Source of the DNA: Candidatus Accumulibacter adjunctus
GTDB taxonomy: Bacteria > Pseudomonadota > Gammaproteobacteria > Burkholderiales > Rhodocyclaceae
Assembly (NCBI GenBank): GCA_000585015.1
Contig: JFAX01000003.1
Location: forward strand, 5,576-69,575
Reading direction: 5' to 3'
Length of the DNA stretch: 64,000 nt
Positions 2,642-19,891 of this stretch are shown here, in pieces. Below the pieces are notes generated by a model. It searched no databases. It had not been told where the DNA came from and worked only from the letters and a program-made list of their open reading frames with translations. The position numbers and the translations under genes are program-made. The number at the start of each line of letters is the position of its first letter. Position 1 is the first letter of the stretch.

Positions 2642-5600
2642 TCAAGGCGGCACGGCGCCCCAGTTCGCTGCCGCCGGAGATGTGTCGGGGGCCTGCAGTG
2701 GCAACTGGAGGATGAAGGTGCTTCCTTCGCCGGGCGCGCTGCGCGCCTCGATGCGGCCACCGAGCACGCGGGTGGCGATACTGTAGACGATGTGCAGGCC
2801 GAGACCGCTGCCGCCCTGGCCGAGGCGGGTGGTGAAGAACGGATCGAAGATGCGCGGCAGGTGCGCGGCTGCAATGCCGCAACCGTTGTCGCTGATCCGC
2901 AGCGTCACGCGTCCGTTGTCGGGCTGACTCGCGACGATCTCGATGACGCCCGCTGCGGCATTCGCGAAGCCATGCACGAGCGCGTTGGTGGCCAGGTTGC
3001 CGATGATCTGGCCCAGCGGCCCGGGGAAGCTGTCCATGACGATGCCGTCCGGAATGTCGACCTGGATGCGGTGTGGCGTCTTCCTGTACTGTGGTCGCAG
3101 GGTGGCGACGATCTCGTCGATCGTCGCCGCCAGGTCGAACCGTCGGCGCTGCGCGCTGGTCTGGTCGACGGCGACCTGCTTGAAGTGTCCGATCAGGTCG
3201 TTCGCCTGCAGCAGGCTGCGCTCGATGAGGCCGGTGGCCTGCATCGCAGCGGCGACGAAGTCCCGCAGCGCCGTGCGCGACAGGCTGGCGCCCTCCGCCA
3301 GTTGCGAGAACTGGCGCGTCTTTCCGGACAGGGTGGTGGCCACCAGCAGGCTGTTGCCCAGCGGCGTTCCCATCTCGTGCGCCACGCCGGCCACCAGCGA
3401 GCCCAGCGAGGCCAGCTTCTCGCTGCGGATCAGTTCTTCCTGGGCGCGCCGCAAGGTGTCGAGCGTTTCCCGCAGCTGCGCGTTGGACGCGGCGAGTTCC
3501 TCGGTACGCAGCCGGACGCGCTCGTCGAGTTCCTCGTTCGCCCGCCGGAGGGCCTCCTCGGCCTGCTTGCGGGCGGTGATCTCGAGGGCGGCGCCGACCG
3601 TGCGCAGTGGCTGACGCGAGTCGCCGTCGCCGGCGAAAGACGTCTGCCCCATCGCCAGCACCCAGCGGACGACGCCCGAGCGGCCGACGATGCGGTACTC
3701 GGCCTCGTACTGACCGTCGCCGTTCGCGTCGTGGGCGCGGCGGATGGCCGCCAGGACGTGCTCGCGGTCATCGGCATGAACGACCTCGATGAACGAATCG
3801 ACACTGCGCGGCTCGTCGGCTCCCCAGCCGAACATCGCACGCAACTCGGGCGACCAGTAGATCGTGTCGGCCCGGTGATCGCGGTCGAAGATGCCGATCC
3901 CGGAGACGCGGATCGCCTGCAGCAGGCGTTGCTCGCTCTGGCGCACCGCTTCTTCGGCGCGCCTGCGCTCGGAGACGTCGCGCACGAAGGCGAAGCCGTA
4001 GACCCGTCCGCCGAAAGCGATGACTCGCGACGATACTTCGACCGGAAAGCTGCTGCCGTCCTTGCGCCGGTGCCGCGTGCCCTCGCGCAGCGAGCCCGCC
4101 AGTCCGGAGCCGGGCGCCGATTCGCGCCAGCCCGCTTCGCTGCTGTCCGTGTCGACATCCCAGAGGTGCAGCCGCAGCAGCTCTTCGCGCGTGTAGCCGA
4201 GCGAACGGCAGGCTTGCTCGTTGGCATGGACGAAACGGCCGTCCCGGTCGAGCCAGAAGATGGCGTCGGACGCGTGCTCGACCGAGAGGCTGGTCAGCTC
4301 GAGCATCTCTTCCGACTGCTTGCGGCTGCTGATGTCGGCGTGCGTGCCGAGCAGCCTGAGCGGCCGCCCCTGCGCGTCGCAGGCGACCACCCTGCCGACC
4401 GATTGGATCCACCGCCATTCGCCCGACTTGGTCTGCAGCCGGTACTCCAGCTGATACTCGGTGCGCGTGCCGGCGATGCACTCGTGCAGGGTGCGTCCGG
4501 CGAGGTCGCGGTCTTCCGGGTGCACGCGCTCGAGCCAGTTCGCCGCATTCAACTCCAGTTCGCCGTCTGCGTAGCCCAGCATGCCGGCATACTCGGTGCT
4601 GACCAGCGCTTTGCCGCTGCCGAGGTCGAGGTCATAGAAGCCGAGCTTCCCCGCGACCAGGGCGAGGCGCAGTCGTTCCTCGTTGCTCCTCAATGCCGCT
4701 TCGGCATCGCGACGCCTCCTGTTTTCGCGCACGGCCTCGGTGAGACTCGCGCAGTTGTTCAGGAAGGGTGCGAGCTGGGTCGCCATGGCCTCGCTGTAGC
4801 CGCCTTGACGGTTGGCGACGCCGATCATTCCGACCAGTTCGTCGCCACGGAAGAAGGGCAGTCCCATGAACGCGTTCAGCGGCGGATGGCCGGGCGGACG
4901 GCCATGTCGCCGTGGATCGCTGTCGGGATCGTTGGCGATCACCGGCCTGGCGCTGGTCATGACGGCGCCGAAGAGCGAGTTCAGGTTGCGGAACTCCAAT
5001 CCCTTTGGCGCGTGCTGCGCGTAGAACGCCCGTGTCTCGTCGTTCCAGGCGATGTTGCTGATCGCCTGGGTGCGCAGGAAGGGCGAGCCGTCGTCGTTGC
5101 GGTGAACCTCGCCGATGAAGCCGTACTCGCTCTCGGTCAGTGCCAGCAGTGAGGACAACATGCGCTCGAAGACGTCACGGGTATCGGCGCCAGCGATGTA
5201 CAGGGCCTGCGTCTGGCTGACGGCATGGCTCAGGGCATTGGAGCGGCGCAACGACTGTTCCGCGCCCTTGCGCCGCCGGATGTTGTTGACCAGCACGAGC
5301 ACGGCGAGCGCCAGGGCGAGGACCACCGCCGTCGTCAGCCAGACGGCACCGCGATACTGGTCGTACAACGTCGGCGGCTTGCCGACGACGACGCTGCCTG
5401 CGGGCAGTTCGTGTTCGCCGATGCCGTGGCGCTGCATCCGGCCATGGTTGAAGAGGTAGGCGAGCGGCGCCGCTTGCACCGGAATGCTCCGCGCGTCCTC
5501 GCCCGCCAGGATGCGCACCGCCATCGCCGCCGCCAGCCGACCGACCTCGGTGCCGTCCGCGACCTTGCCGCCGAGGGTCAGGCCGCCACGGACGCGCTGG

Positions 5601-6469
5601 CTGGTGATGTCGAAGAGTGGCGCCGGCGACACGGCGCTGACCCGTTCGACGACTTCCGCCGGACCATGGTGGTGGCCCCCGGCGTCCCTGGCGGAGGCGA
5701 GGACGAAGACGATGTCCTCGGCCGACAGCGCGGCGGCGCTGGCGACGATCTCCTCGAGATCGAGATCGTGCTTGATCCGGATCGGAATGTCCGTCTGCAG
5801 GCTGGCGAGTGCGTCGCGCGCATGGTCGAGACCGGAACCGGAATCGGCCCGATTGGCGTACACGACGACCTGCGTGGCCCTGGGTCGCAGGCGCTGCGCC
5901 GCCTGCAGGGTCGACGGGACGTCGATCCGCTCGCTCACGCCCGTGATGGCGATTTCCGGCGGAAACGCCTGCACGTCGAAGGCCGCTGCATCGCTGAAGA
6001 CGACCGGCGTGCCGGCGAAGAGCGATGGCTGATGCCTGGCGAGGAAGGAAAGCGCTGCGTCGTCGGTGGCGATGATCAGGTCGAAGTGCTGCGAGCGGTA
6101 ATGGCGCCCGAGGTATTCGGCGAAGCCACGCTGGTCGTCGGGGGCCGGCAGCCGCAGGACATCCATGTACTCCAGGAAAATCTCGGGACGCGGGTGGCTC
6201 GCCTTGAGCACCGCCGTGATTCCCTCGACCTGCGCGTCGGTCCAGCCGAAGCCCTGGTGGTATGAGTTCAGCACCAGAACAGCCTGGCGATCGGGGGCAG
6301 CCTGGACGCTGTCGGTGGCGATCAGGCAGGTCGCCCCGATCGCTGCCAGGCCGAGCATCCGGATGCCGTTCAGGATGCGCATGGCAGCCGCGAGCATTCG
6401 TGCCAGATGCTGCGCGGCAGGATGGAAGCGGTCGGCGGTGGCGCCGCGCTGCGGCCTCATGCCGTCCAT
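2642..6469 (-). CDS. Sensor histidine kinase with N-terminal ABC-substrate-binding-like domain, TM, GAF and several PAS domains
   Basis: 1275 aa. N-term AVLVLNSYHQGFGWTDAQVEGI... (ABC_sub_bind-like), GAF-like segment, PAS/PAC repeats, HAMGTPLGNSLL H-box region, C-term DNGCGIAAAHLPRIFDPFFTTR...GSGLGLHIV (HATPase). The start may be the internal Met near 6381. Confidence 0.9.
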   Translation of the reverse strand: MDGMRPQRGATADRFHPAAQHLARMLAAAMRILNGIRMLGLAAIGATCLIATDSVQAAPDRQAVLVLNSYHQGFGWTDAQVEGITAVLKASHPRPEIFLEYMDVLRLPAPDDQRGFAEYLGRHYRSQHFDLIIATDDAALSFLARHQPSLFAGTPVVFSDAAAFDVQAFPPEIAITGVSERIDVPSTLQAAQRLRPRATQVVVYANRADSGSGLDHARDALASLQTDIPIRIKHDLDLEEIVASAAALSAEDIVFVLASARDAGGHHHGPAEVVERVSAVSPAPLFDITSQRVRGGLTLGGKVADGTEVGRLAAAMAVRILAGEDARSIPVQAAPLAYLFNHGRMQRHGIGEHELPAGSVVVGKPPTLYDQYRGAVWLTTAVVLALALAVLVLVNNIRRRKGAEQSLRRSNALSHAVSQTQALYIAGADTRDVFERMLSSLLALTESEYGFIGEVHRNDDGSPFLRTQAISNIAWNDETRAFYAQHAPKGLEFRNLNSLFGAVMTSARPVIANDPDSDPRRHGRPPGHPPLNAFMGLPFFRGDELVGMIGVANRQGGYSEAMATQLAPFLNNCASLTEAVRENRRRRDAEAALRSNEERLRLALVAGKLGFYDLDLGSGKALVSTEYAGMLGYADGELELNAANWLERVHPEDRDLAGRTLHECIAGTRTEYQLEYRLQTKSGEWRWIQSVGRVVACDAQGRPLRLLGTHADISSRKQSEEMLELTSLSVEHASDAIFWLDRDGRFVHANEQACRSLGYTREELLRLHLWDVDTDSSEAGWRESAPGSGLAGSLREGTRHRRKDGSSFPVEVSSRVIAFGGRVYGFAFVRDVSERRRAEEAVRQSEQRLLQAIRVSGIGIFDRDHRADTIYWSPELRAMFGWGADEPRSVDSFIEVVHADDREHVLAAIRRAHDANGDGQYEAEYRIVGRSGVVRWVLAMGQTSFAGDGDSRQPLRTVGAALEITARKQAEEALRRANEELDERVRLRTEELAASNAQLRETLDTLRRAQEELIRSEKLASLGSLVAGVAHEMGTPLGNSLLVATTLSGKTRQFSQLAEGASLSRTALRDFVAAAMQATGLIERSLLQANDLIGHFKQVAVDQTSAQRRRFDLAATIDEIVATLRPQYRKTPHRIQVDIPDGIVMDSFPGPLGQIIGNLATNALVHGFANAAAGVIEIVASQPDNGRVTLRISDNGCGIAAAHLPRIFDPFFTTRLGQGGSGLGLHIVYSIATRVLGGRIEARSAPGEGSTFILQLPLQAPDTSPAAANWGAVPP

Positions 6470-6747: not shown

Positions 6748-8331
6748 TCACTGCTTGCTGCCGAAGTGGACGGTCGGCGCCACCGGGAACGCCGAGAGCG
6801 TGACGACGCGTGGCGCCGACGGGGTGTCGCCGGCAGCTTCGGGTGGTGTCGGCGGCATGTTCTGGCGGCCCCACCAGGCGTCGAGGAAAGCGCCGAGCGC
6901 CTGCGAGTCGCGCAGCAGGTGGTCGAGCTTGCGGTCGAAGAAGAGCAGGGTCGACGTGCCCCTGCCACCGATTTCGTGGATCGAGCCCGGCGCCACCGGC
7001 TGCAGCGGTGGCCGGTTGCGGGCGCGCCAGAGATAGGCGCCGGATTCGCCTGCCGGTGACGGGGGTTCGATGTCGACGATCAGGTTCCAGCGCTCGCTGC
7101 TGGCGAGCTTCAGTTCGATTCGTGCCGGTAGCGCGTGCAGCGGGATGGTCGCCGGCTTCGTCTCGAGTGCTGCGACATCGACGCTGGCAAGCGGCTCCGC
7201 GAGCCCACGGATGGCACCGCTGGCGCGCAGCACCGGCATCAGGGCGCCGACGAGGAAGACCCCGAGGATGGCGGCGCAGATCGTCAGCCGCTGGCTGTCG
7301 GCTGCCGCTTCGCGGGCGCAGGGAACACGGGCGTCGATCCAGGCGTAGGCGCCGGCGAGACCGAAGCAGATTGGTAGCCACCAGATCCAGACCTGCGAAC
7401 AGACGCTGCCGCTGATGCCATGGAAGAGGCCGGTGGCGAGGGTGACGCAGACGAGGCCGGCAGCGGCGCCGATGACGCTGGCGAAGCCACCGCCAACGAG
7501 ACGCCGGCAGCTGCCGAGAGCGCCGTCCGCGGCGATGGTGCCGGCGCGGATGGCGCCGGCGGCGATCGGCGGCAGCAGGAGAAGCATGCCGGCAATGACC
7601 CAGTCTTCCGGGTCGGCGAGGGCGCCTCTGGCGTTGTCGAGGAGGATCGCGGCGACGCAGATGATGCCTGGCGCGGCCGTATGCAGGCAGGCCCAGGCGA
7701 TTTCCGCCAGCGCGCCACTGCTGCGGCGAGCATGCAGGCGGTACGGCGTCGTTCGCCAGGTGCCGAAGGCGATCAGCGGGCCGGCGATGAACAGCAGGCT
7801 GGCAACCAGCGGGCCGACGACATCGTGCTCGCTGCGCAGGCTGATTTCGGCCAGCCACTGCAGGTAGGCGAGCGCGGCGAGGACGCCGAGGACGGCGGTG
7901 AAGAGTCCCGGCACCATCGCGCGGACGGAGCGTGACCACCAGCCGGCCGTACCGCGTGCCTGCCGGAACAGCGACAGCGCGAGGTGCAGCCAGGGCAGTG
8001 TGGCCGGCAGCGGCGGCAGGCGGGCGCCCTGCGCCTGCAGGCGGCCGAACAGTGCATAGGCTGGCGGCGCCTGTCCGGGGCTGCCGAGCGTCGCCGCCAT
8101 CGCCGGCCCGAGATTCGCCGGCGACTGTTGGCAAAGCGTCGCCAGCTCGGCTTCGGCGGTGCTGCGCACGCCCGCGTCGCCGTCGCTGATGGCGAGCTGC
8201 AGCAGTTTTTGCAGCGCCGTGTCGTCGGCGATGGTGGCGAGCGCGACGGCGGCGTTGCGCCGCGCCTGCGCGCTGCTGTCTTCCGCCTGCAGGAATTCGT
8301 CGATGATCTGATGGGCGGGATGATGGTTCAT
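6748..8331 (-). CDS. HEAT-like N-terminus + multi-pass membrane protein, third component of the TIR-SIR2/STAND operon
   Basis: 527 aa. N-term ARRNAAVALATIADDTALQKLLQLAISDGDAGVRSTAEAEL (HEAT-like), then about 7 hydrophobic segments. Start overlaps the upstream stop by 4 nt (ATGA). Confidence 0.8.
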   Translation of the reverse strand: MNHHPAHQIIDEFLQAEDSSAQARRNAAVALATIADDTALQKLLQLAISDGDAGVRSTAEAELATLCQQSPANLGPAMAATLGSPGQAPPAYALFGRLQAQGARLPPLPATLPWLHLALSLFRQARGTAGWWSRSVRAMVPGLFTAVLGVLAALAYLQWLAEISLRSEHDVVGPLVASLLFIAGPLIAFGTWRTTPYRLHARRSSGALAEIAWACLHTAAPGIICVAAILLDNARGALADPEDWVIAGMLLLLPPIAAGAIRAGTIAADGALGSCRRLVGGGFASVIGAAAGLVCVTLATGLFHGISGSVCSQVWIWWLPICFGLAGAYAWIDARVPCAREAAADSQRLTICAAILGVFLVGALMPVLRASGAIRGLAEPLASVDVAALETKPATIPLHALPARIELKLASSERWNLIVDIEPPSPAGESGAYLWRARNRPPLQPVAPGSIHEIGGRGTSTLLFFDRKLDHLLRDSQALGAFLDAWWGRQNMPPTPPEAAGDTPSAPRVVTLSAFPVAPTVHFGSKQ

Positions 8332-10439
8332 TGCATCACCTGCTGGGTCCAGTGGCGCACGTCGGCATGCTCCTCGGCGGTGGCGCGCAGGAGTTCGCTG
8401 CGCAGGATCGCCTGTCGCTCGGCGGGGGTGAAGGCCTGTCGGTCACGGTTGGCATTGATCTGCTGCAGCTCGGGGCGCGAAAGGAAGCCCGGTCCGGCGG
8501 CGCTGCCGGCGAGCCGCTGGCGGATGGTGCCGAGGTCGGCGATCGCGGCGAGGCCGTTGGCGGCGTCCAGCCAGTAACGCAGCGTCGGCCGCTGCTCGCC
8601 GCCGCTGCCGTGGCAGAGCCACGCGCGCAGCATCTGCTCGACCGCCCAGCCGTTCCATTGCACGCGCTGCCGGTTGCGGTCGAGGATGGCGAACTCGGCG
8701 CGGTTGATCACCGAGTCCGTGGCCGAGGCAGCGGGATCGCGCTGGCTCTCTGCCAGGGCGCGCAGCGCGACGCGAAACTGCTGATACTCGACGTTGCCAT
8801 AGAGATATTTCTGCAGCGCCTCCTGGATCGCCGGGATGAGGAATTCGTGCGTGATCTCGATGAACTGGCCGCCAAGGCGTGGCTCGATGCGCACCAGCGT
8901 GCGGTTGACCAGCTTGTCGAGCAGGGCCGTCCGTCGCGTCGGGTCGCGGAATGGAAAGTGGATCAGTTGCCGACGTTCGACGATGTTGCGCGTGCCGCTG
9001 CCGGTGATCAGCGGCTCGATCAGCTCGAGTGCCTCTCGCCGCTCGTCGTCGTCGGCCAGGGCGACGAGGAAGTCGTGCAGGAAGTCGCGCAGGATTCCGC
9101 GCGCGCCGTGCAGGCGCTCGGCGTAGGTCGCGAGCGGCACGGTCGGCAGCTCGCCGGCGGCAGCCGGGGCAGCGCGACTGACGAGTTGGCGGCCGGACTC
9201 GAGCCAGAGCTTCTCGCACACCAGCGACAGGTGGGCCGGTTCGATGTAGCGCTCTTCCTTCAACAGGTCGGCGAGGATCTGGTTGAAGCACTCTTCTTCG
9301 TAGGTATAGCCGTAGAGCACCGCTGGCTCCTCGATCGCCTGCCGTGCGCTGGCCTGTGTCAGCAGTTCGAGCTGGCAGGCCGAGCGATCGAGTTCGGGAA
9401 CGAACTCGCGGATCGGCCGCAGCTGCGCGATGTACTCGCTGCGCATCGAGAGCAGGAAGCGGACCGGCAGTGGCGACCGCCGGCCACGACGACGGCGCCC
9501 GTCCTCTGCCGGTGGCTCGCGGCAGAGCGTGCGCAGTTCGTCGATGAACTCGACGCGCAGGCGCCAGTCGGGCATGTCGTGGCTGCCGGGCGCGTGCAGT
9601 GAGCCGGCGTCGACGAAGCGCGTGAACAGCTCCTCGAACTGGTCGAAGAGCAGGACGAGGCAGAAACCTGGCCGCACCGAGCCGTAGATGCGCAGCAGGT
9701 TGTCGATGAAGGGTCGCAGCTCGCGGACCGGCAGGTCGAGGTAGTCCAGCGTCGTCGCGTAGGCCGCGCGACAGGCGGGACCGTCGAGGATGTGCAGCAA
9801 CTGCCGCACGCGCGTGTCGCCGCGAACCGGCTGCCAGGATTCGCTGCCGGTACCACAGGCGGTGGCGATCGCCGCCAGATGGTCGGCGACGGTCGCCAGA
9901 TCGAGGCTGGAGCGCAGCAGGCGGCAGATGTAGGGCGTCACCTTGCCGCCGTCGAGCGCCGGGTAGCGGGCGCACGACCCTTCGAGCGGCACGGGCGCGA
10001 TCAGGCAGCGCTTGCGCGGATCATGCAGCGGCAGAATCTCCCGATCGTCGTAGCGCGCCAGCAATTCGTCGAGAGTCGGATCGTCGGTGGCGGCGAAGAG
10101 GCCGTCCAGCGCGCGGCGCAGCGCAAGCGCCTCGGCTTCCGGCGGTGGCAGGACGTATTGCAGGCAGGCAATCCGCGTCGCGCGCACCGGATCGTTCTGC
10201 GGCAGGATGCGCACCGGTGTCCAGCCGCGCTGCTCGAGCTGCGGGATCACCAGAGCGTTGAGCAGCGAGGTCTTGCCGGCACCCGACTGGGCATGCAGCA
10301 GGCTCATCTGCGCCGAGAGCACATGCGCGACGATCTGGTCGGCCACTTCCCGGCGACCGAAGAAGAAGGCGGCGTCTTCGACCTGGTAGCTCTCCGGGCC
10401 CTTGTACGGCTTGTACTGTTCGATCATCGGCGTCGTCAC
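8328..10439 (-). CDS. Novel STAND-type P-loop NTPase
   Basis: 703 aa. FFFGRREVADQIVAHV...SLLHAQSGAGKTSLLNALVIPQLE (Walker A) and CLVLLFDQFEELFTRF (Walker B), in the nSTAND order. GTG start overlaps the upstream stop (GTGA). Confidence 0.88.
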   Translation of the reverse strand: MTTPMIEQYKPYKGPESYQVEDAAFFFGRREVADQIVAHVLSAQMSLLHAQSGAGKTSLLNALVIPQLEQRGWTPVRILPQNDPVRATRIACLQYVLPPPEAEALALRRALDGLFAATDDPTLDELLARYDDREILPLHDPRKRCLIAPVPLEGSCARYPALDGGKVTPYICRLLRSSLDLATVADHLAAIATACGTGSESWQPVRGDTRVRQLLHILDGPACRAAYATTLDYLDLPVRELRPFIDNLLRIYGSVRPGFCLVLLFDQFEELFTRFVDAGSLHAPGSHDMPDWRLRVEFIDELRTLCREPPAEDGRRRRGRRSPLPVRFLLSMRSEYIAQLRPIREFVPELDRSACQLELLTQASARQAIEEPAVLYGYTYEEECFNQILADLLKEERYIEPAHLSLVCEKLWLESGRQLVSRAAPAAAGELPTVPLATYAERLHGARGILRDFLHDFLVALADDDERREALELIEPLITGSGTRNIVERRQLIHFPFRDPTRRTALLDKLVNRTLVRIEPRLGGQFIEITHEFLIPAIQEALQKYLYGNVEYQQFRVALRALAESQRDPAASATDSVINRAEFAILDRNRQRVQWNGWAVEQMLRAWLCHGSGGEQRPTLRYWLDAANGLAAIADLGTIRQRLAGSAAGPGFLSRPELQQINANRDRQAFTPAERQAILRSELLRATAEEHADVRHWTQQVMQ

Positions 10440-11986
10440 GGGGAAGCTCCGCGCAATTGCCTGAGGAAGCGTTCGCTGGGCATGTCGAGCATCTCGACAC
10501 CGTAGCGCGTCGTCGCCCAGTTCGCCAGCCGGCTCCAGGCCCGCAACCCCATCTGGTGGCTGCAGTCGCGCTGGTCACCGAGGTCGCGCGGATGCACGGC
10601 GAAGCGCCGGATCTGTCCGCGGCGGACGTCGAGGCACTCGCGCAGCAGGTAGTAGCTGAGGCGGAAATCCGGGTCGAGGATGCGGCTGCCGAGGCAGACG
10701 ATCGGCGTGTTGGAGAGTATCTGTCCGATCTGCTCCGGTACCGCCTTGTGCGACGGCGAGCGCGACACGGCTTCGTAGTACTGTTCGGTCGAGAGGGTGA
10801 AGCTGTCGCGAACGTCGAGTGAACCGTGCAGTTTGTAGAGGATCGGCTCGCGCAGATCGGCAAAGATGCTCGCCAGCTGCGTGCCATCGGGCGAGCCGGC
10901 GCTGGCCTGCTCGAGGCTGACACTGCGCGCGTCGCATTCCTCGATGACGCGGTCCATGTCGTCGCTGCTGTCGAGCGGGAAGGAGTGGTGGTAGCCACTG
11001 CGTTCGCCGACGCGGATGAAACCACTCCCGCTCAGCTCCACCTGGTCGTAGAGGTTGATGTCGAGCCGCCTGCCCGAGGCCGATTGGACGAAGCGTGTGA
11101 ATCCCATGCCGGCACGCAGGAAGGCCTGCTCGATCGTCGTGTCGAGCACCGAGGTGATGACGAGGTGGCGGTAGCGCCGGCGTCCGCGGCCGGCGGGGCG
11201 GGCGCAGAGCTGCCGCAGCAGCAGCGCGAGCTCGTCATAGGCCGCCGGTATCTGCAGGTGGCCCTGGCGCAGGATGCTCGCGACATCGGTCTGCAAGCGG
11301 TTCTCGTCGCTCTTGACGGCGTAGTAGTTGGCCGCGAGGTCGAGCGAGGGGAGCATCGCCGGCGCCTCCTCGCCGATCAGTTCGAGCGATCGCAACAGTT
11401 TCTCGCTGATGTCGCAGGGGGTGAGTGCCGACATGAGTCCGCGGCCGACGAAGAACGAGATGGCGTCGTTCTCGAGGTGTCCCTGCAGATAGGCGATCGC
11501 CTCGCGGTTCGGGTCGATCGGCGCGGGCGTCGTCGCCGCCGGACGTGCCGCCTGCGCCGCGCGGGCGAAGCGCGGATGGACGCCGGTGATGCCGGCGACG
11601 AGGCGCTCGAAGTTCGGTTGGTCGTCGAGCGAACGCAGGAGGCAGAAGTCGAGGTTCTTGAGGAACAGCGGGATGCGCTCGTCGCGGACGTCGACGCCGG
11701 GCAGCGCAACGGGTACCACGCGCATCTTGCGTTCGGCATTGCGGTTCAGCGCCGCCCGCACCTCCGGCGCCTGCCAGTTGCCCAGCCCCTTGCGGCCGAT
11801 GAAGACGACGCTGGTGTTGAGCTGGCGCAGGGCCTCCTCGAGCTTCTCCTGCCACGGGTCGCCCGGGACGAGTTCCCAGCGATCGAACCATACCTGCAGG
11901 TTGGCCTCGTCGCGCAGGCGCTCGGCGATCCGCGTCACCTCGTCTTCGTCCTCCCTGCTGTAGCTCAGGAAAGCGTCGTAGCTCAT
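10436..11986 (-). CDS. TIR-SIR2-like fusion protein
   Basis: 516 aa. N-term MSYDAFLSYSREDEDEV...VWFDRWELVPGDPWQEKLEEAL...VVFIGRKGLGNWQAPEVRAAL (TIR, W..E motif). C-term AISFFVGRGLMSAL...HLVITSVLDTTIEQAF...ILYKLHGSLD...PIVCLGSRILDPDFRLSYYLL (SIR2_2-like). Confidence 0.85.
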   Translation of the reverse strand: MSYDAFLSYSREDEDEVTRIAERLRDEANLQVWFDRWELVPGDPWQEKLEEALRQLNTSVVFIGRKGLGNWQAPEVRAALNRNAERKMRVVPVALPGVDVRDERIPLFLKNLDFCLLRSLDDQPNFERLVAGITGVHPRFARAAQAARPAATTPAPIDPNREAIAYLQGHLENDAISFFVGRGLMSALTPCDISEKLLRSLELIGEEAPAMLPSLDLAANYYAVKSDENRLQTDVASILRQGHLQIPAAYDELALLLRQLCARPAGRGRRRYRHLVITSVLDTTIEQAFLRAGMGFTRFVQSASGRRLDINLYDQVELSGSGFIRVGERSGYHHSFPLDSSDDMDRVIEECDARSVSLEQASAGSPDGTQLASIFADLREPILYKLHGSLDVRDSFTLSTEQYYEAVSRSPSHKAVPEQIGQILSNTPIVCLGSRILDPDFRLSYYLLRECLDVRRGQIRRFAVHPRDLGDQRDCSHQMGLRAWSRLANWATTRYGVEMLDMPSERFLRQLRGASP

Positions 11987-13176
11987 CTCTGCTGCAGCCG
12001 TGAAACGAGGATCTGCCGCAGTTCGTCGTCACTGAGGACGATCGGGTTGCTCTTCATGCTGCCGCCGCGACTGGCGGCGACGATGCGCGGCAGGTCGTCC
12101 TCGCCGATGCCGTAAGCCGACAGTCGGGGCAGTTCGAGTTCGCTCTCCCAGCGGCGCAGCGTGTCGATGAGGAAGCGGCGCGCGTCGCGACCGTTGAGGC
12201 CTTTCTGCATGGCAAAGCGGCGGCCGATCTCGGCGTACTTCGGCAGTGCGGGGTTGTCCGGCTCGCGCGCCTCGAGGGCGGCGATGTTGCACGCGGTCGC
12301 GCTCGCCACCAGCGTACCGCAGACGACGCCATGCGGGATCGGGAAGAAGGCGCCGAGCGGCGAGGCGAGGCCATGCACGGCGCCGAGCCCGGTCTGCGCG
12401 AGGCAGATTCCCGAGCACAGCGAGGCATGGGCCATCTGCGCGCGGGCCGTCGCCGACTGCTCGCGATGGAGCGCGAGCAGCGAATCGCGCGCGGCCATGA
12501 TACCGGAGCGGGCGAGGGCGTCGGTCAGCGGGTTGGCACGCGTGGCGACGAAGGCCTCGAGGAGCTGGGTGAAGGCGTCGAGGCCGTCGGCGGCGATCAG
12601 CGCCGGCGGACAGGTGGCGAGCAGGTCGGGATCGACGATCGCCCATTCCGCCACCAGCCGCTCATCGCGGAATGACTTCTTGAAGCCGCCGGGCGCCGTC
12701 AGGACGGCGTTGCGCGTCGCCTCCGAACCGGTGCCGGCGGTCGTCGGGACGGCGATGAACGGCGTTGCCGGCCCGCGGTAGGGGAGTTCGGGGCCGACTC
12801 CCTCGAGATGGTCGAGCACCGAATTCCCGGGCCGCAGCAGGCCGGCGACCGCTTTCGCCGCATCGAGCGCGCTGCCGCCGCCGATGCCGACGACGCAATC
12901 CCAGGTGGTGCCGCGCAGTGCGGCGACGCTGTCATCGACGAACTCCGGCGACGGCTCGCCGGACACCGGCAGCCGTTGCCAACCGAGGCCAAGCTGCTGG
13001 AACTGCGCGAACAACCGGCCGGCGGCTGCCGACTCGACGAACGAGCGCTCGCCGGTGACGAGCAGCACCCGGCTACCGTAACTGGCGGCGATCGCCGGCA
13101 GCCGGTCCACAGCGCCACTGCCGAACTCGATGCGCGGCAGGCGTGAGATCGAGAAGGGGGCGAAGGCGTCGCTCAC
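11983..13176 (-). CDS. Iron-containing alcohol dehydrogenase
   Basis: 397 aa. IEFGSGAVDRLP, GIGGGSALDAAKAVA, VPTTAGTGSEATRNAVL, HGLASPLGAFFPIPHGVVCGTL. Confidence 0.93.
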   Translation of the reverse strand: MSDAFAPFSISRLPRIEFGSGAVDRLPAIAASYGSRVLLVTGERSFVESAAAGRLFAQFQQLGLGWQRLPVSGEPSPEFVDDSVAALRGTTWDCVVGIGGGSALDAAKAVAGLLRPGNSVLDHLEGVGPELPYRGPATPFIAVPTTAGTGSEATRNAVLTAPGGFKKSFRDERLVAEWAIVDPDLLATCPPALIAADGLDAFTQLLEAFVATRANPLTDALARSGIMAARDSLLALHREQSATARAQMAHASLCSGICLAQTGLGAVHGLASPLGAFFPIPHGVVCGTLVASATACNIAALEAREPDNPALPKYAEIGRRFAMQKGLNGRDARRFLIDTLRRWESELELPRLSAYGIGEDDLPRIVAASRGGSMKSNPIVLSDDELRQILVSRLQQR

Positions 13177-13466
13177 GCCGGGAACAGCCCGTTCATCGGC
13201 TCACCACGGCGCGGCTCGGCCATCATCCCGGCGACGGCGTCGCGCCAGGCGAGGTAGTGCGCCGTCTGCTTGTGCGCGGCGGCGTCGGCGGCCGAGGCGT
13301 AGGCTTCGTAGAGGATGAAGCGGGTGGCGTCTTCGGGCGCCTGCAGGACGTCGAAACGCCGGTTTCCCGGCTCGCCGACCGAGGCTTCGTGATTCGCCCG
13401 CGTGGCGGCGATGAAGGCGTCGACCGACTCCGGACGGACGCGGACATGGACGAGGGTGACCTGCAT
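13173..13466 (-). CDS. ABM-family (antibiotic biosynthesis/quinol) monooxygenase, LsrG-like
   Basis: 97 aa. MQVTLVHVRVRPESVDAFIAATRANHEASVGEPGNRRFDVLQAPEDATRFILYEAYASAADAAAHKQTAHYLAWRDAV. AAGGAG ribosome-binding site upstream. Confidence 0.9.
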   Translation of the reverse strand: MQVTLVHVRVRPESVDAFIAATRANHEASVGEPGNRRFDVLQAPEDATRFILYEAYASAADAAAHKQTAHYLAWRDAVAGMMAEPRRGEPMNGLFPA

Positions 13467-13525: not shown

Positions 13526-14050
13526 TCAGGACCGGATCGCCTCGTCAAGGGTGATGTCGACCATCAGGTCGTTCGACAGATGCTCGAGATCGCCGGTCAG
13601 CTGGTGGACGTCGAGGGTCGCTGCCGCGGTCAGCTCGGCGGTCGCGTGGAAAAGGATGCCCGCCGACATCGGCGCGCTGGCGGTGTGCGTGCTGAGATCC
13701 TCGACGTTGATCGCGTGCCGCGCGAGCACCTGCGACACTTCGCGGACGATGCCGATGCGGTCGTGGCCGACGAGTGACAGCTTGAGCCGCCGCGTGGCAG
13801 CCGGTGCGGCCGCTGCTCGCGAGACCTCACAGCCGACGCGCAGGCCGGGCAGCGCGGCAAGGTCGGCTTCGAGCGCCGGCAGATCGCCTTCGCCGATGCT
13901 GACGCAGACGATGCCGGCGAACTTGCCGGAAAGATTCGACATCGATGACTCGAGCCAGTTGCCGTGGTGCCGGCTGATGGCGGTGGCAAGCTGCTCGACG
14001 AGACCGGGGCGATCATCGCCGATGACGGTGAGAACCAGGGAAACGTTCAT
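13526..14050 (-). CDS. Tandem ACT-domain protein, GcvR-like
   Basis: 174 aa. LVLTVIGDDRPGLVEQLATAISRHHGNWLESSMSNLSGKFAGIVCVS...LSLVGHDRIGIVREVSQVLARHAINVEDL. Confidence 0.88.
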   Translation of the reverse strand: MNVSLVLTVIGDDRPGLVEQLATAISRHHGNWLESSMSNLSGKFAGIVCVSIGEGDLPALEADLAALPGLRVGCEVSRAAAAPAATRRLKLSLVGHDRIGIVREVSQVLARHAINVEDLSTHTASAPMSAGILFHATAELTAAATLDVHQLTGDLEHLSNDLMVDITLDEAIRS

Positions 14051-14523: not shown

Positions 14524-16641
14524 CTAGTCGTGCCGGAAGTACTTCTTCGGCGTGCTGTTGATGATGTATTCGCTCGCCTGCTGCACGCAGTCGCGGATCG
14601 CGGCTTCCATCGGCGTGTTGCGAAAGCCGCCGAGGCTGACCGGGATGGCGGTCCCGCGGCGCGACAGCGTCGCGCCGATGTTGGTCTGCGATGCGCTCGC
14701 CTTGCCCTCGATCCTCTTTGCCCCGAGCACGCGACCGGTCGCGATGTCGATGACGCGGACGTCGATCGCCAGGTGGGCGTTGCGGGATTGATGGCCGAAA
14801 GTGAGCGGAATCTTCGGCACGCCGAGCTCGAGTCCGCCGCCCGACGCTTCGAGCTCGAACTCGGTGACGGCGGCGGAGACCATGATCTCGGCGACATCCA
14901 TCTGCCTTTCGGCAATGATCGCGTCGGGGCGTGCCAGCGGCGACCGCGAGAGCGCCTGTTCGGCAGCAAGGCCCTGCAGATCGAGACGTTCGACGACGAT
15001 GAAGCGACCGTTTTCGTGCATCGTCGTCATCATCATTTCCCGCAGGCCATCGCCGACGAATTGCCCGGCACCCGCCGCCTTGACCATGAATTCGCCGATC
15101 GCGATCATCGCCTTCCTGCCCGGCGGCACGGTTTCGGCAGGCGCCGCGCCGGTGGCCCGGGCGGCCGGGCGCGCCGCCGCTTCGGCGCCTGCTCCTGTCG
15201 CCATCGGCGGTGCCGTTGGCTGGCTGGCCGCGGTGTCGGTCGTCGCCGCGACGGGCGCCGCCGTCACCGCGCTGGGCGTCGTCAGCTCGCCCTGTCGTTG
15301 CCGCAGCACCTCCAGCATCTGGCGGTGGCTGGCGTTGCCGGGGTCGCGTTCGAGCGCCAGGCGGTAGTATTTCTCGGCCTCTGGCCAATCCTGGCGGGTG
15401 TAGTGGACGAGGGCCAGTCCGGCGTAGGGCAGCGGCCATTGCGGGGCCGTCTCGATGGCCTTGAGATAGGCGTCCCGCGCCTGCGCCTGGGCTCCGAGTC
15501 CGACGTATGCGAGGGCGAGATTGTTCAGTGTTTCCGCCCGTGGCCCCGCGAGGTCGAGCGCCTTGCGGCAGGCGCGTACGGCGTCGGCATGACGCTGCTG
15601 CATCAGCAGGCCATGGCCGAGCCTGGCCCAGCTCTGAGCCTCGCTGGGCACGCGCGCAGTCGCCTGCCGGTAATGGCGTTCGGCTTCCTGCCAGCGGCCG
15701 CTGTCGTAGGCGGCGTCGGCCAGCTCGAGGTCGCTCTTGTAGGCGCGGTAGCTGGCTTCGTCCAGCGCCAGCAGCTCGGCGCGCACCTGCGCGGCTGCCG
15801 CGGTGTCGGCCGCCGGCGCGCCCGCTGCGCGGTCTGCAGCCGACCGGCTCGCGGCGGCGGGAGCCGGTACCGCAGCCGCAACAAGCCGGTCGGCAGCGTC
15901 CCACTCGGCGCTGGTCATCGCGGCCGCTGGCGCGGCGGCACTGAGCAGCACTTCCTTCTCCCAGCCGTCGCGCCGGACGACGAGACGCAAGGGGCGGTTG
16001 GCGGCAGCGGCCCCGTGCAGCAGCCGGACGAGCCCGCTCGCGCCGCCGGGGGGACGGCCGTCGACGCGTGTCACGAGGTCGCCCGGCTGCAGGCCGGCGG
16101 CGGCCGCTGCCGTGTCGGCGAGCACGGCAGCGATCGCGACGCTGCCGGCGGGCTGGGTGCCCGCAGCCGGCTCGGCCAGGCGCAGGCCGAATCGTCGCGC
16201 TGGCGCCGGGCGGGCTGCCTGCGGCGGCAGCACGATGTCGCGTTCCCAGCCCTGGCGCGAAACGCGCAGCGTCACGGCCTCGCCGGCAGGCACGCTGCGG
16301 GCGCGCAGGGAAAACTGGGCGGCGCCGCCGATCGGCGTCTGCTGCAGACGGCGGACGATGTCGCCGGGCTGGATGCCCGCTGCCGCCGCGCTGCTGTCCG
16401 GGGCCACCGTCGCCACCTCGGCACCGCTCGCGTCGCCCGTATCGCGCAGCTCGAGGCCGAACTCGCCTGCTGCGGCGAGAGTCGCCGCCGCCAGCAACAG
16501 GCCCGCCAGCAGGCGGAAGCAACTCGTCAGGCAGCGGCCGACGGCGCTGCTGCGTCGCTGGCCGAAGTCTGCGCCGGTCAGCGGGGGTGGGCTCGGCGGG
16601 TCACCGCGGGCGGTTGGCGGCGTCTGTGCAGCGGCTTGCAT
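14524..16641 (-). CDS. Exported two-PDZ + TPR + CsgG-like protein
   Basis: 705 aa. Two PDZ-like segments (AAAAGIQPGDIVRRLQQTPIGG and AAAGLQPGDLVTRVDGRPPGG), TPR region (AQSWARLGHGLLMQQRHADAVRACRKAL...), C-term IGEFMVKAAGAGQFVGDGLREMMMTTMHENGRFIVVERLDLQG (CsgG-like). Confidence 0.82.
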   Translation of the reverse strand: MQAAAQTPPTARGDPPSPPPLTGADFGQRRSSAVGRCLTSCFRLLAGLLLAAATLAAAGEFGLELRDTGDASGAEVATVAPDSSAAAAGIQPGDIVRRLQQTPIGGAAQFSLRARSVPAGEAVTLRVSRQGWERDIVLPPQAARPAPARRFGLRLAEPAAGTQPAGSVAIAAVLADTAAAAAGLQPGDLVTRVDGRPPGGASGLVRLLHGAAAANRPLRLVVRRDGWEKEVLLSAAAPAAAMTSAEWDAADRLVAAAVPAPAAASRSAADRAAGAPAADTAAAAQVRAELLALDEASYRAYKSDLELADAAYDSGRWQEAERHYRQATARVPSEAQSWARLGHGLLMQQRHADAVRACRKALDLAGPRAETLNNLALAYVGLGAQAQARDAYLKAIETAPQWPLPYAGLALVHYTRQDWPEAEKYYRLALERDPGNASHRQMLEVLRQRQGELTTPSAVTAAPVAATTDTAASQPTAPPMATGAGAEAAARPAARATGAAPAETVPPGRKAMIAIGEFMVKAAGAGQFVGDGLREMMMTTMHENGRFIVVERLDLQGLAAEQALSRSPLARPDAIIAERQMDVAEIMVSAAVTEFELEASGGGLELGVPKIPLTFGHQSRNAHLAIDVRVIDIATGRVLGAKRIEGKASASQTNIGATLSRRGTAIPVSLGGFRNTPMEAAIRDCVQQASEYIINSTPKKYFRHD

Positions 16642-16696
16642 CGTGCTCCTTTCTCGTCGTCGGCCGTCTGGCTGCCGGTGGTGCGCGTTTTTGCGC

Positions 16697-19600
16697 TCAG
16701 TGGCATTCGCAGCGGTGGCGGGCGCCGCCGAGCACCGCCACGCCCTTGCGGCCGTCCTCGGCGCAGCGCGCCTGGCAGGTCTGCTGCACCCAGGCGTCGC
16801 GGCCCTGGTCCAGCTTGCGCTGCGCCTGGCGTTGGCAGTCGGCGCCCCGCTCGCGTCGCCCGGGTTTGCCGTCGGCGAGGAACTGGGCGATGCAGGTGCC
16901 GATCTCGGCGACGAAGCCCGTCAGGCCGGAGCTCACCTTCGCCTGATAAGCGGGGTGCAGGCTGCACCAGGCGATGTAGTTGCCGAAATGGCCGCCACAG
17001 CCCGGGCAGTCGAGGGCGCAGCCCGAGTAGCCGCCGCCCGAGCAGTTGCGGCGGTTGCAGTCCTCCGACATCTGGCGACAGCGTGCCTCCATCTGCTGCC
17101 CGACCTGCAGGCATGCCTGACCGTTCCCCTTCGGTTCGTAGACTCCGGGCGGCGGGCTGCCCGCCGCAGTCGACGGGGTGGCCGCTGTGGTGGCCGCTGT
17201 GGCGGCCGCTGTGGCGGCCGCTGCGCTGGCTCCGGTGACGGCGGGAGTCGCGACAGCAGCCGGCCGGCTGGACGTATCGCGGGTCGTGGCGCCGGCTGGC
17301 TGCTGGCCGTCGCCGGCCGTTACCGGCAGACAGTGGCCGCCCTGGCAGCTGTACCCGGCGGGACACGTGGCGTCGCTGGCACAGTGGCTCTCGCCGCCAG
17401 CGCTGCGACCGTCGCCGTCGCGCGACGTGGACAGCGTCTGTCCGTCACGCGCCATCTGTTGCCGCAGGGTGTCGGACGAGAAGCGTCCACCCGGTCCCCA
17501 ATAAGGCCCTAGGCTGCCGCTGCCGGCACCCTGGCGGCTTCTCTCGCGCTGTCCGTAGAGGTCGAGCACGCTGCCTGTCGGCACCTCACTGGGTCGCTGC
17601 TGGGCGGATGGCGCGGTGGCCGGGCCGCCGGGCAGGCAGCGACCATCCCGGTCGCAGCGCTCACTCGGGCAGTTGGCGGCCAGCCAGTTGCGGGCATCGC
17701 CGTCGCTCAGCAGATGTTCGACCCAGACCCAGCTGTCGACGCGATTCGGGTACTCGGTGAAGCCGACGCCACCGTGCTGCCGACTGCAGACCACAGCCCA
17801 GCGGCCACCGCTGCGGATCGCTCCGGCGCGGGCGCAGGCGCCGTCGGGAGTGCACGTCCAGGAAGGGCAGTTCTGCTCGATCCACCAGCGCGCACTGGCC
17901 TCGCCGGCGAGTGCCGGCGACATCGGGCGGTGCCCGGGCAGGGTGCCGGAGCGGCCGATGACGACGTGTCCCGTCGGATCGCAGAGTGCCTGGTAGCCGT
18001 CACCAGCGGCTGCCGCCGGCGGTGGCTCGCGGGCGCACAGGCCGTGTGTGCCTTCGATCGTGCACACGGTTCGCGGACAGTTCTCCCCGATCCACTGCTC
18101 GGCGCGTCGCGGTCCCATGAACGGGCCAGCGATGATGCCGAAGAGGGCAGGGGTCGTGTCCTCGCCGTATACGACGCGGCCACTCCGGTCGCAGAGGACA
18201 TACCAGGTCGGACGCCAGGGTTCGCTTCCCGGTTCACCCGGCCGGCGATCGTCGGCGTGGCTCAGGGGCGGTGTCCATGCGGCCGCCTGCAGGTCGACGG
18301 TGGCCTTCCCCGCACAGCCGTCCCAGCGTGCGCTGACGAGCACGCGCTCGTCGAAGCGCACCTCCGGCGGCGCGCCATAGGTGTTCGCCGGCCCCGGCTG
18401 CCAGCTCGCGAGACGTGTCACATCGGTCTCGGAGCCGTCGTCGAAGACGGCGGTCGCCGTGAAGCTGAGCTGACCGCCCGCGCCGATCTGCACCTGCTCC
18501 GGCTTCAGCCGCAGGTAGAGGCAGTTCTTGCGCCGCGTCTGCGACCCTGCGCTGGCAGGAGCCGGCTCGCTTGTGTCGCCCTCTGCCGGCCCGGCGCGCG
18601 AGCCTCCCGGAAGCGCTTGTCCGGGATCCACCGGCGCTCGCTGCAGATTGACGGTGACCGTCGCCGGACGGACGACCTCGGCGCCGCCGGACGGATTGGC
18701 GAGCGTGACGGTGAAGCTTGCCATCGCGCCGCCGCCGGAAGCGGCCAGGATGGGAACGTCGATGCTGCGGATGCCCTTGTCGCTCTCGGCCCAGCTGAGC
18801 GTGCCGGTGACCGGGGTGTAGTCGACCCCGGGTCGGGCGCTGCCCGGCTGCGTCTGATAGTCGACCGTCACTTCCCCCTTGCTGAAGCCGTCGCGGGTGA
18901 CGATGAGCCGCACCTGGCGGTCGGCCGGAGCGGCGCTGACCGCGTCCTCGACGAAGCTGATCTCGCCGCCCATCCGCGAGCGATCGCGGCTCGCCGCTGC
19001 GCGCTTGAGGACGAGCGTCGTCTCCGGCCAGCGATCGGGGCGGGCATCGCCGCGCTTGACGGCGATACCGAGCAGCAGCGCGCGGTCACCGGGTTCGGCA
19101 TCACTGTTCAGGATCTCGATTTCGACGGTTTTCCTGCCGACCTCGCCGTCGGCCCAGTCGAGGGTGTCGCTGGCGAGCCGGTAACTGACACCCGCCGATG
19201 CCGTTGCCAGATACGACGGGCTGCCGCGGGGAACGATCTGCACGCTGAGCGCGCCCCGGCCACTGCCGGTCCTGTGGACGGCAAGGCTCACCTGGCCGAC
19301 ATCCTTGCCGACCTCGCCCCAGGATTCGACGAAGCCGATGGTGTCCGGGCTGCCCTTGCGCCAGATCTCGATCTGATCCTCGCGATAGCTCCGGTGTGCC
19401 TGCAGGATGCGCTCGACGGTCCAGCCCTTGAAAAGGGTTCTCTGGTAGTCGAGGTCGCGTGGATCGACCACCTCGCTCTTGCGTGGCAGGCTGTTGCCGA
19501 CGAAATTCTGGAAGTAGTGGTCGATCGTTCCGGCTGCGTTGACGACGCCCGAGTGACTGTCGCCGAAGAGCAGCGCGTCGCCCGGGCGGTAGCGCTGCTT

Positions 19601-19891
19601 TTCGTCGAGCCGGCCGACGGCGGCCGACGCACTGTACCGGTACTTCGTGTAGCCGCGCGCGGCGAGGCGGCTGCGCAGTTCGCCGGCACTCAGCATGTTG
19701 CCGTCCTCGCCGGTCAGGGCATGGTAGGTGTAGTCGTGGCAGTTCTGGATGGCGCTCGCCAGGCGGGGCCAGGAAATGGCCAGCAGCGACAGGACGACCA
19801 GGGCGAGGAGGGCGGGCAGGGTGAAGGCGCGCTGCCGCAGCGCGTACCCGCAACGACCCGGTGGCCTCCGTTGCTGCGCCAGCGAACTCAT
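16697..19891 (-). CDS. Large exported Calx-beta protein with N-terminal CHAP/NlpC-like segment and three ~60-aa Cys repeats
   Basis: 1064 aa. TM/signal anchor, NCHDYTYHAL...GDALLFGDSHSGVVN, Calx-beta blocks (VDYQTQPGSARPGVDYTPVTGTLSWAESDKG), Cys-rich repeats ending NCPxxxC. Confidence 0.75.
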   Translation of the reverse strand: MSSLAQQRRPPGRCGYALRQRAFTLPALLALVVLSLLAISWPRLASAIQNCHDYTYHALTGEDGNMLSAGELRSRLAARGYTKYRYSASAAVGRLDEKQRYRPGDALLFGDSHSGVVNAAGTIDHYFQNFVGNSLPRKSEVVDPRDLDYQRTLFKGWTVERILQAHRSYREDQIEIWRKGSPDTIGFVESWGEVGKDVGQVSLAVHRTGSGRGALSVQIVPRGSPSYLATASAGVSYRLASDTLDWADGEVGRKTVEIEILNSDAEPGDRALLLGIAVKRGDARPDRWPETTLVLKRAAASRDRSRMGGEISFVEDAVSAAPADRQVRLIVTRDGFSKGEVTVDYQTQPGSARPGVDYTPVTGTLSWAESDKGIRSIDVPILAASGGGAMASFTVTLANPSGGAEVVRPATVTVNLQRAPVDPGQALPGGSRAGPAEGDTSEPAPASAGSQTRRKNCLYLRLKPEQVQIGAGGQLSFTATAVFDDGSETDVTRLASWQPGPANTYGAPPEVRFDERVLVSARWDGCAGKATVDLQAAAWTPPLSHADDRRPGEPGSEPWRPTWYVLCDRSGRVVYGEDTTPALFGIIAGPFMGPRRAEQWIGENCPRTVCTIEGTHGLCAREPPPAAAAGDGYQALCDPTGHVVIGRSGTLPGHRPMSPALAGEASARWWIEQNCPSWTCTPDGACARAGAIRSGGRWAVVCSRQHGGVGFTEYPNRVDSWVWVEHLLSDGDARNWLAANCPSERCDRDGRCLPGGPATAPSAQQRPSEVPTGSVLDLYGQRERSRQGAGSGSLGPYWGPGGRFSSDTLRQQMARDGQTLSTSRDGDGRSAGGESHCASDATCPAGYSCQGGHCLPVTAGDGQQPAGATTRDTSSRPAAVATPAVTGASAAAATAAATAATTAATPSTAAGSPPPGVYEPKGNGQACLQVGQQMEARCRQMSEDCNRRNCSGGGYSGCALDCPGCGGHFGNYIAWCSLHPAYQAKVSSGLTGFVAEIGTCIAQFLADGKPGRRERGADCQRQAQRKLDQGRDAWVQQTCQARCAEDGRKGVAVLGGARHRCECH
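17178..17226. repeat. 12-bp tandem repeat (GTGGCCGCTGTG-type, 4 copies) encoding an Ala/Thr linker
   Basis: gtggccgctgtggtggccgctgtggcggccgctgtggcggccgctgcg. Confidence 0.85.

What the first reader, a model, noticed from the sequence alone, without database searches (positions are those of the whole stretch)
6748..13466. Candidate undescribed defence-like operon: ABM monooxygenase, Fe-ADH, TIR-SIR2 fusion, STAND NTPase, HEAT/multi-TM protein
Sequence: five - strand genes, each overlapping the next by exactly 4 nt (GTGA at 13173, ATGA at 11983, GTGA at 10436, ATGA at 8328). The core combines a TIR-SIR2 fusion, an nSTAND-type NTPase and a membrane protein. Established: TIR and SIR2 domains act as NAD-processing effectors in Thoeris, SIR2- and TIR-containing Argonaute systems and DSR systems; STAND NTPases are phage sensors in Avs systems. 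Inference: one operon joins a STAND sensor/switch, an NAD-targeting effector and a membrane effector, and the two oxidoreductase-type genes may be redox or NAD(H) accessories. I do not recognise this five-gene layout. Caution: 4-nt overlaps also occur in the isc, ABC-transporter and Hsp70 clusters here, so coupling alone is not evidence of function.
Basis: partly seen in the sequence, partly recalled or inferred. Interest (0 to 1): 0.87.

Follow-up and report, generated by a model that had tools for sequence, protein, structure and literature searches.

The report
STAND-switch operon with TIR–pseudo-sirtuin partner

Summary
The five minus-strand ORFs and four 4-nt overlaps are real. The five-gene operon is not supported. 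In all six other loci carrying the system, Fe-ADH and TIR-SIR2 are separated by 195-257 nt holding a conserved promoter-like block and ribosome-binding site; the window genome lacks that stretch, so its ADH/TIR overlap is private. Fe-ADH occurs in ten genus genomes without the trio, visibly with ABM in eight. The core is TIR-SIR2 / nSTAND1 / HEAT-7TM, always together with 4-nt overlaps, in 6 of 28 Accumulibacter genomes forming one rpoB clade (support 1.0); not detected elsewhere.

The SIR2 half is degenerate: GRGLM for GAGxS and TSVLD for TTNxD in all seven copies, His kept. The TIR Glu is intact. Other Burkholderiales carry SIR2*-TIR beside nSTAND1. Of ten further SIR2-like genes found beside nSTAND1, eight lack the catalytic Asn; no canonical TTNxD protein had nSTAND1 within 1.5 kb. 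Best reading: an nSTAND1 switch controlling a TIR NADase, with a non-catalytic sirtuin as regulatory or docking module and a membrane partner. PADLOC names no such system; antiphage activity is untested.

The parts
10436..11986 (-). Gene 1 of the core: TIR (residues 6-130) fused to a degenerate SIR2-like domain (about 170-482), 516 aa
   Evidence: Pfam TIR_2 3.5e-22, SIR2_2 1.5e-10, matched in all 7 orthologues; orthologues 91-97% identical
11762..11764 (-). Codon of TIR Glu75 (GNWQAPEVRAAL), candidate catalytic residue
   Evidence: Invariant in 7 orthologues; aligns with the Glu of the solved TIR 7uxr; catalytic role from established TIR biochemistry
11147..11149 (-). Codon of SIR2 Val280 (TSVLD), at the place of the catalytic Asn of TTNxD
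   Evidence: TSVLD invariant in 7 orthologues; canonical SIR2_2 proteins of the same genus read TTNYD/TTNFD/TTNWD there
10826..10828 (-). Codon of SIR2 His387 (KLHGS), the one canonical sirtuin catalytic His, kept
   Evidence: Invariant in 7 orthologues
8328..10439 (-). Gene 2 of the core: nSTAND1 NTPase, 703 aa, no recognised C-terminal sensor repeats
   Evidence: Pfam nSTAND1 1.1e-38 and nothing recognised after residue 563; orthologues 88-94% identical
10266..10286 (-). Walker A of nSTAND1 (SGAGKTS, residues 52-58)
   Evidence: Invariant in 5 orthologues
6748..8331 (-). Gene 3 of the core: N-terminal HEAT-like helices (about 1-100), seven predicted TM segments (139-368), C-terminal soluble domain (369-527)
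   Evidence: HEAT_2 1.3e-5, below its Pfam cut-off; hydropathy gives 7 TM, positive-inside favours N-in/C-out; AF2 pLDDT 65-84 for the first 110 residues, low elsewhere; found only with the trio
11983..12012 (-). Private junction: Fe-ADH end fused to the TIR-SIR2 start where the six other trio loci have a 195-257 nt spacer with a conserved promoter-like block and ribosome-binding site
   Evidence: block absent from the whole window genome
11983..13176 (-). Neighbour, judged not part of the system: iron-containing alcohol dehydrogenase
   Evidence: Present without the trio in 10 genus genomes
13173..13466 (-). Neighbour, judged not part of the system: ABM-domain protein, LsrG-like
   Evidence: Pfam ABM 6e-19; NCBIfam PRK10486 88.9 bits, below its cut-off of 135; overlaps ADH by 4 nt in 7 of 7 trio loci

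Best explanation
The core is a chromosomal three-gene STAND-switch module: TIR-SIR2*, nSTAND1 and HEAT-7TM. Shown: the three genes always occur together with 4-nt overlaps, are under purifying selection, have a conserved promoter-like upstream region of their own in six of seven loci, and lie in one Accumulibacter clade. Shown by motif: the TIR active-site Glu and the nSTAND1 Walker A are intact, while the SIR2 domain has lost the GAGxS loop and the TTNxD Asn. Inferred: nSTAND1 is the nucleotide-dependent switch; when triggered it assembles with and activates the TIR half, which cleaves NAD+; the sirtuin-like half no longer catalyses and instead binds NAD+, ADP-ribose or the STAND as a regulatory or docking module; the HEAT-7TM protein is the membrane-side sensor or second effector, standing in for the WD40 sensor that some related nSTAND1 proteins carry. 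Most likely use: cell suicide or growth arrest that protects a clonal microcolony from phage or another invader. ABM-ADH is a neighbour.
For: Strict co-occurrence: TIR-SIR2, nSTAND1 and HEAT-TM orthologues in the same 6 of 28 genus genomes. Overlaps of 4 nt in every readable locus, ADH>TIR gap 195-257 nt in six of seven. Conserved block TTGC..TGCCCAT..C.CTGTTAAATAATGG plus AGGA(A/G)CGGA in the spacer. Mean dN/dS 0.14, 0.16, 0.36. Sister arrangements: X-SIR2* overlapping nSTAND1-WD40 by 4 nt; SIR2*-TIR followed by nSTAND1 in five other Burkholderiales genomes, in G003 (L110) and in Paraburkholderia. Asn lost in every SIR2* of these pairs while the TIR Glu is kept. No canonical TTNxD SIR2_2 had nSTAND1 within 1.5 kb. 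nSTAND1 and TIR as parts of predicted conflict systems, and Accumulibacter named among microcolony-formers with such loci: PMC8195603, PMC10907252.
Against: The trio is vertically inherited in one clade with no mobile-element or viral link found, unlike most phage-defence genes. Neither PADLOC nor NCBIfam names it. The neighbours identified so far are ordinary chromosomal genes, not a defence island. AlphaFold models were too poor to test the SIR2 fold or any contact. No activity data exist. PaAvs5 works with NG in place of HG (PMC12931631), so an unusual sirtuin can still be active.
Confidence: 0.5

Rival explanations
1. Five-gene NAD/redox defence operon: ABM and Fe-ADH supply or spend NAD(H) for the TIR-SIR2/STAND core.
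For: ABM-ADH lies directly upstream of the trio in 7 of 7 loci; in the window all five genes overlap by 4 nt.
Against: Fe-ADH occurs without the trio in 10 genus genomes; a 195-257 nt spacer with a conserved promoter-like block parts them in all six other loci; all seven loci belong to one clade, so shared position needs no functional cause.
Confidence: 0.1
2. A clade-specific regulatory or stress module, not immunity: the STAND with its TIR and membrane partner responds to an internal or envelope signal.
For: Perfect vertical inheritance in one clade; no hits in viral contigs; purifying selection without rapid change except in HEAT-TM.
Against: TIR plus STAND sets are predicted conflict systems (PMC8195603, PMC7159879); the sister SIR2*-TIR/nSTAND1 pairs show the same effector-switch layout.
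Confidence: 0.27
3. Both TIR and SIR2 act as NADases, a double NAD-depleting effector.
For: SIR2 His387 and the Asp of TSVLD are kept; unusual sirtuin sites can be active, as PaAvs5 with NG (PMC12931631).
Against: GAGxS and Asn are both lost, invariantly, in seven orthologues, and Asn is lost in all sister SIR2*-TIR proteins, which lost the His of HGS too; N110A in PaAvs5 and N142A in SPARSA abolish function (PMC12931631, PMC10781750).
Confidence: 0.08

Closest known systems
SIR2*-TIR + nSTAND1 gene pairs of Burkholderiales (found here: L110, L119/L128, L121/L129, L122/L130, L125/L132, L126/L131, L164) and X-SIR2* + nSTAND1-WD40 (L111)
   Same: A degenerate SIR2 domain, in most fused to TIR, encoded directly before an nSTAND1 NTPase, with a 4-nt overlap in L111 and L129
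   Different: Domain order is reversed (SIR2*-TIR); the nSTAND1 proteins read are longer (1150-1576 aa), two of the three scanned with WD40; no HEAT-7TM gene seen
nSTAND1 conflict systems predicted by Kaur and colleagues (PMC8195603; EACC1-linked, PMC7159879)
   Same: nSTAND1 NTPase in systems with TIR or SIR2 among the predicted effectors; enriched in aggregate-forming bacteria
   Different: Those use effector-associated adaptor domains and fused effectors; the passages read do not describe this three-gene layout or a pseudo-sirtuin
Avs5 (SIR2-STAND; PMC12931631)
   Same: Sirtuin-like domain linked to a STAND NTPase
   Different: Avs5 is one protein with an essential catalytic TTNxD and a C-terminal sensor; here SIR2 is on another gene, fused to TIR, and lacks Asn
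Thoeris (ThsA SIR2-SLOG, ThsB TIR)
   Same: TIR and SIR2 domains in one system
   Different: No SLOG or macro domain, TIR and SIR2 in one protein, SIR2 not catalytic by motif, STAND present
TIR-STAND fusion proteins (TIR-NLR type; from general knowledge)
   Same: TIR effector governed by a STAND switch
   Different: Split over two genes with a sirtuin-like module between, plus a membrane partner

Membership tests
Thoeris | ThsA with catalytic SIR2 plus SLOG or macro sensor domain | tested here: not met
   No ThsA model hit at E 0.01; no SLOG or macro domain in Pfam; GAGxS and TTNxD lost
Thoeris | ThsB TIR protein as a separate gene | tested here: not met
   TIR is fused to SIR2; ThsB models match only weakly, E 0.0016-0.0055
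Avs (AVAST) | STAND protein with fused effector and C-terminal sensor repeats | tested here: not met
   No PADLOC hit for the STAND; nothing recognised after residue 563; effector on another gene
Avs (AVAST) | Recognition of a phage protein | not testable with these tools
   Needs infection or co-expression
SPARTA/SPARSA (short Argonaute with TIR or SIR2) | Short Argonaute and APAZ in the operon | tested here: not met
   No Argonaute or APAZ among the five genes or the adjacent genes scanned
nSTAND1-centred conflict system | nSTAND1 NTPase with intact Walker A | tested here: met
   Pfam 1.1e-38, SGAGKTS invariant
nSTAND1-centred conflict system | Linked effector domain such as TIR | tested here: met
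   TIR-SIR2* next to nSTAND1 in 7 of 7 loci; related pairs elsewhere
nSTAND1-centred conflict system | Protection against phage or invaders | not testable with these tools
   No experiment available
Catalytic SIR2 NADase | GAGxS and TTNxD motifs with catalytic Asn and His | tested here: not met
   GRGLM and TSVLD in all 7; only the His (KLHGS) is kept
TIR NADase | Catalytic Glu | tested here: met
   Glu75 invariant and aligned to the Glu of the solved TIR 7uxr

The most novel reading that the evidence does not exclude
A wider class of STAND systems uses a dead sirtuin domain as the NAD- or ADP-ribose-reading regulator of an adjoining TIR NADase, so that the switch senses the substrate or product of its own effector; the Accumulibacter trio is a derived form in which a HEAT-7TM protein replaces the WD40 sensor.
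Probability: 0.22. Interest if true: 0.75.

Novelty: new variant of a known kind. Interest (0 to 1): 0.5.

Why it matters
It separates a real conserved unit from a neighbour, and points to a recurring pairing (nSTAND1 with a TIR and a sirtuin domain that has lost its catalytic Asn) found here in several Burkholderiales genomes and not named in the defence library searched. If the pseudo-sirtuin is a regulator, sirtuin folds in bacterial immunity are not only NADases, and SIR2 hits should be checked for the Asn before being called effectors.

Tried and rejected
AlphaFold of TIR-SIR2 (mean pLDDT 36) and HEAT-TM (46) was too poor for fold search, so none was run. Profile search of the SIR2 half against PDB sequences: no match at E 10. 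Genome-contig scan with the SIR2 half used two narrow peptide patterns and returned only Accumulibacter. Viral-contig scans with the SIR2 half and with the SIR2*-TIR family: no relative. Plasmid searches: TIR-only hits for TIR-SIR2, nothing for the SIR2 half, remote nSTAND hits. Class and family searches: no further trio. The consensus promoter scan did not flag the conserved block, so 'promoter-like' rests on conservation and position only. The 46%-identical TIRs in other Accumulibacter genomes are separate proteins with no match to the trio's other genes in the fetched regions. Considered and rejected: Thoeris, Avs, SPARSA membership; five-gene operon.
Full report
Observation. The five minus-strand ORFs lie exactly where the finding says, each overlapping the next by 4 nt. 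Pfam confirms ABM, Fe-ADH, TIR_2 plus SIR2_2, nSTAND1, and a HEAT_2 match just below its cut-off. The 527-aa protein has seven hydrophobic segments; the positive-inside pattern favours HEAT inside and the C-terminal domain outside. The AlphaFold model is usable only for the first 110 residues, which are helical.

Host.

Unit. Full-length TIR-SIR2 is found in 6 of 28 genus genomes, 91-97% identical. Close nSTAND1 and HEAT-TM orthologues occur in the same six and nowhere else in the genus. Family-wide (299 genomes) and class-wide (369 genomes) samples, whose first look scores few candidates per genome, added none. An rpoB tree puts the six in one clade with support 1.0. The simplest account is one gain and vertical descent. 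G003, a 72% complete MAG, holds two copies, one of them 98% identical in DNA to that of G026, so it may be a mixed bin.

Boundary. Gene spacing was measured in seven loci. TIR-SIR2>nSTAND1 is -4 in 7 of 7 and nSTAND1>HEAT-TM -4 in 6 of 6. ABM>ADH is -4 in 7 of 7. ADH>TIR-SIR2 is -4 only in the window and 195, 217, 222, 222, 230 and 257 nt in the others. The spacer varies except for one block, TTGCATTGCCCAT(GG/AA)CACTGTTAAATAATGG with few changes, and the ribosome-binding region. A -35-like TTGCAT, 17 nt, and a -10-like AATAAT can be read in it; the consensus scan does not flag it. The block is absent from the window and from the whole window genome, and from the fetched ABM-ADH loci without the trio. 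The window genome has thus lost about 0.2 kb including this element, either truly or by assembly. ABM-ADH stands without the trio in G013, G018, G022, G025, G020, G004, G008 and G010; G027 (ADH at a contig end) and G015 (broken ADH) show ADH only. So ABM-ADH is judged a neighbour, not a part. Its constant adjacency within one clade does not by itself show a functional link, but does not exclude one.

Selection. Mean pairwise dN/dS: TIR-SIR2 0.14, nSTAND1 0.16, HEAT-TM 0.36, ADH 0.19, ABM 0.10; mean dS 0.29-0.36 for all. The trio diverged at the pace of its neighbours. HEAT-TM changes fastest, as expected for a sensor or a loosely constrained part. Two loci have a broken nSTAND1 frame: L018 through a run of N, L015 through a frameshift.

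The sirtuin half. Characterised sirtuins carry a GAG-type loop and TTNxD; alanine at the Asn abolishes PaAvs5 immunity (PMC12931631) and SPARSA NADase activity (PMC10781750). Here the motifs read GRGLM and TSVLD in all seven copies; the His of KLHGS remains. Canonical SIR2_2 proteins of the same genus read TTNYD, TTNFD or TTNWD at the start of the Pfam match. Catalysis by this half is therefore unlikely but not excluded. The TIR Glu75 is invariant and aligns with the Glu of the solved TIR 7uxr.

Relatives. A SIR2* protein overlapping an nSTAND1-WD40 gene by 4 nt lies in G022. A search with a profile including it found SIR2*-TIR fusions followed by nSTAND1 in five other Burkholderiales genomes; two more are in G003 (L110) and a Paraburkholderia megaplasmid. 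Pfam confirms SIR2_2, TIR_2, nSTAND1 and WD40 in L129. Their TTNxD sites read SLSFD, STTFD, TTTFD, SLTFD, TMTCD or STGFD: Asn is missing in all, Asp kept, and the TIR Glu kept where TIR is present. An nSTAND1 N-terminal profile run over all SIR2 loci hit ten: the eight Asn-less ones and two orthologous CHAT-like SIR2 proteins reading TANFN. No locus with a canonical TTNxD had nSTAND1 within its 1.5 kb flanks. Five Asn-less small SIR2 proteins (L117, L118, L123, L124, L127) had no nSTAND1, so the rule runs one way only. Several loci are orthologous and four pairs shaped or fed the profile, so these are not independent counts.

Mechanism. Inference: nSTAND1 as switch, TIR as NADase, SIR2* as regulator or dock, HEAT-7TM as membrane sensor or second effector. 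nSTAND1 and TIR belong to predicted conflict systems of aggregate-forming bacteria (PMC8195603, PMC7159879), and Accumulibacter is named among such organisms (PMC10907252). Against a classic defence role stand vertical inheritance, an ordinary chromosomal setting and the lack of any viral or mobile link. No test of phage protection exists.

Known systems. PADLOC-DB 2023 has no model for this set; TIR matches are generic. Sister proteins likewise match only generic TIR, ThsA and repeat models. DefenseFinder was not available. A literature search for the words TIR-SIR2 or SIR2-TIR found no paper in the held library, which lacks most subscription papers. The verdict is a new variant of predicted nSTAND1 conflict systems.

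Noticed in passing
L111:5942-11127 (G022:C2): Another Accumulibacter genome has a 578-aa protein with a degenerate SIR2 (STGFD, HGS kept) overlapping by 4 nt an nSTAND1-WD40 gene; its N-terminus looks DUF4062-like by eye but had no Pfam hit.
   Followed up: yes
L112:5048-6418 (G003:C199): SIR2*-TIR fusion with nSTAND1 directly downstream, next to ABC-transporter genes; an IS66-like transposase remnant (by eye) lies at the contig start.
   Followed up: partly
L089 and L090 (G023:C38, G015:C16): Large proteins with a CHAT-like N-terminus (by eye) and a SIR2 reading TANFN, followed by an nSTAND1-like gene: a further version of the pairing.
   Followed up: partly
L123, L124, L127, L117, L118: Small (about 290-315 aa) SIR2-like proteins with LGxGxL and VWYD or SWYD in place of GAGxS and TTNxD; no nSTAND1 nearby.
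   Followed up: no
window 2642-6469 (-): PAS/GAF histidine kinase with an ABC_sub_bind-like N-terminus downstream of the trio; its start is kept at 93% identity in G003 (L015), while other trio genomes show no such gene there.
   Followed up: partly
window 14524-19891 (-): PDZ-TPR-CsgG protein followed by a Calx-beta protein, shared in order with G014 (L013) only and missing next to ACT in L015-L018.
   Followed up: no
window 13526-14050 (-): GcvR-like two-ACT-domain gene directly upstream of ABM in all trio loci with that region, but not next to ABM-ADH in trio-less genomes.
   Followed up: partly
L134 (G006:C213): G006 carries a second, very divergent rpoB (62% identity), pointing to contamination of that MAG.
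   Followed up: no
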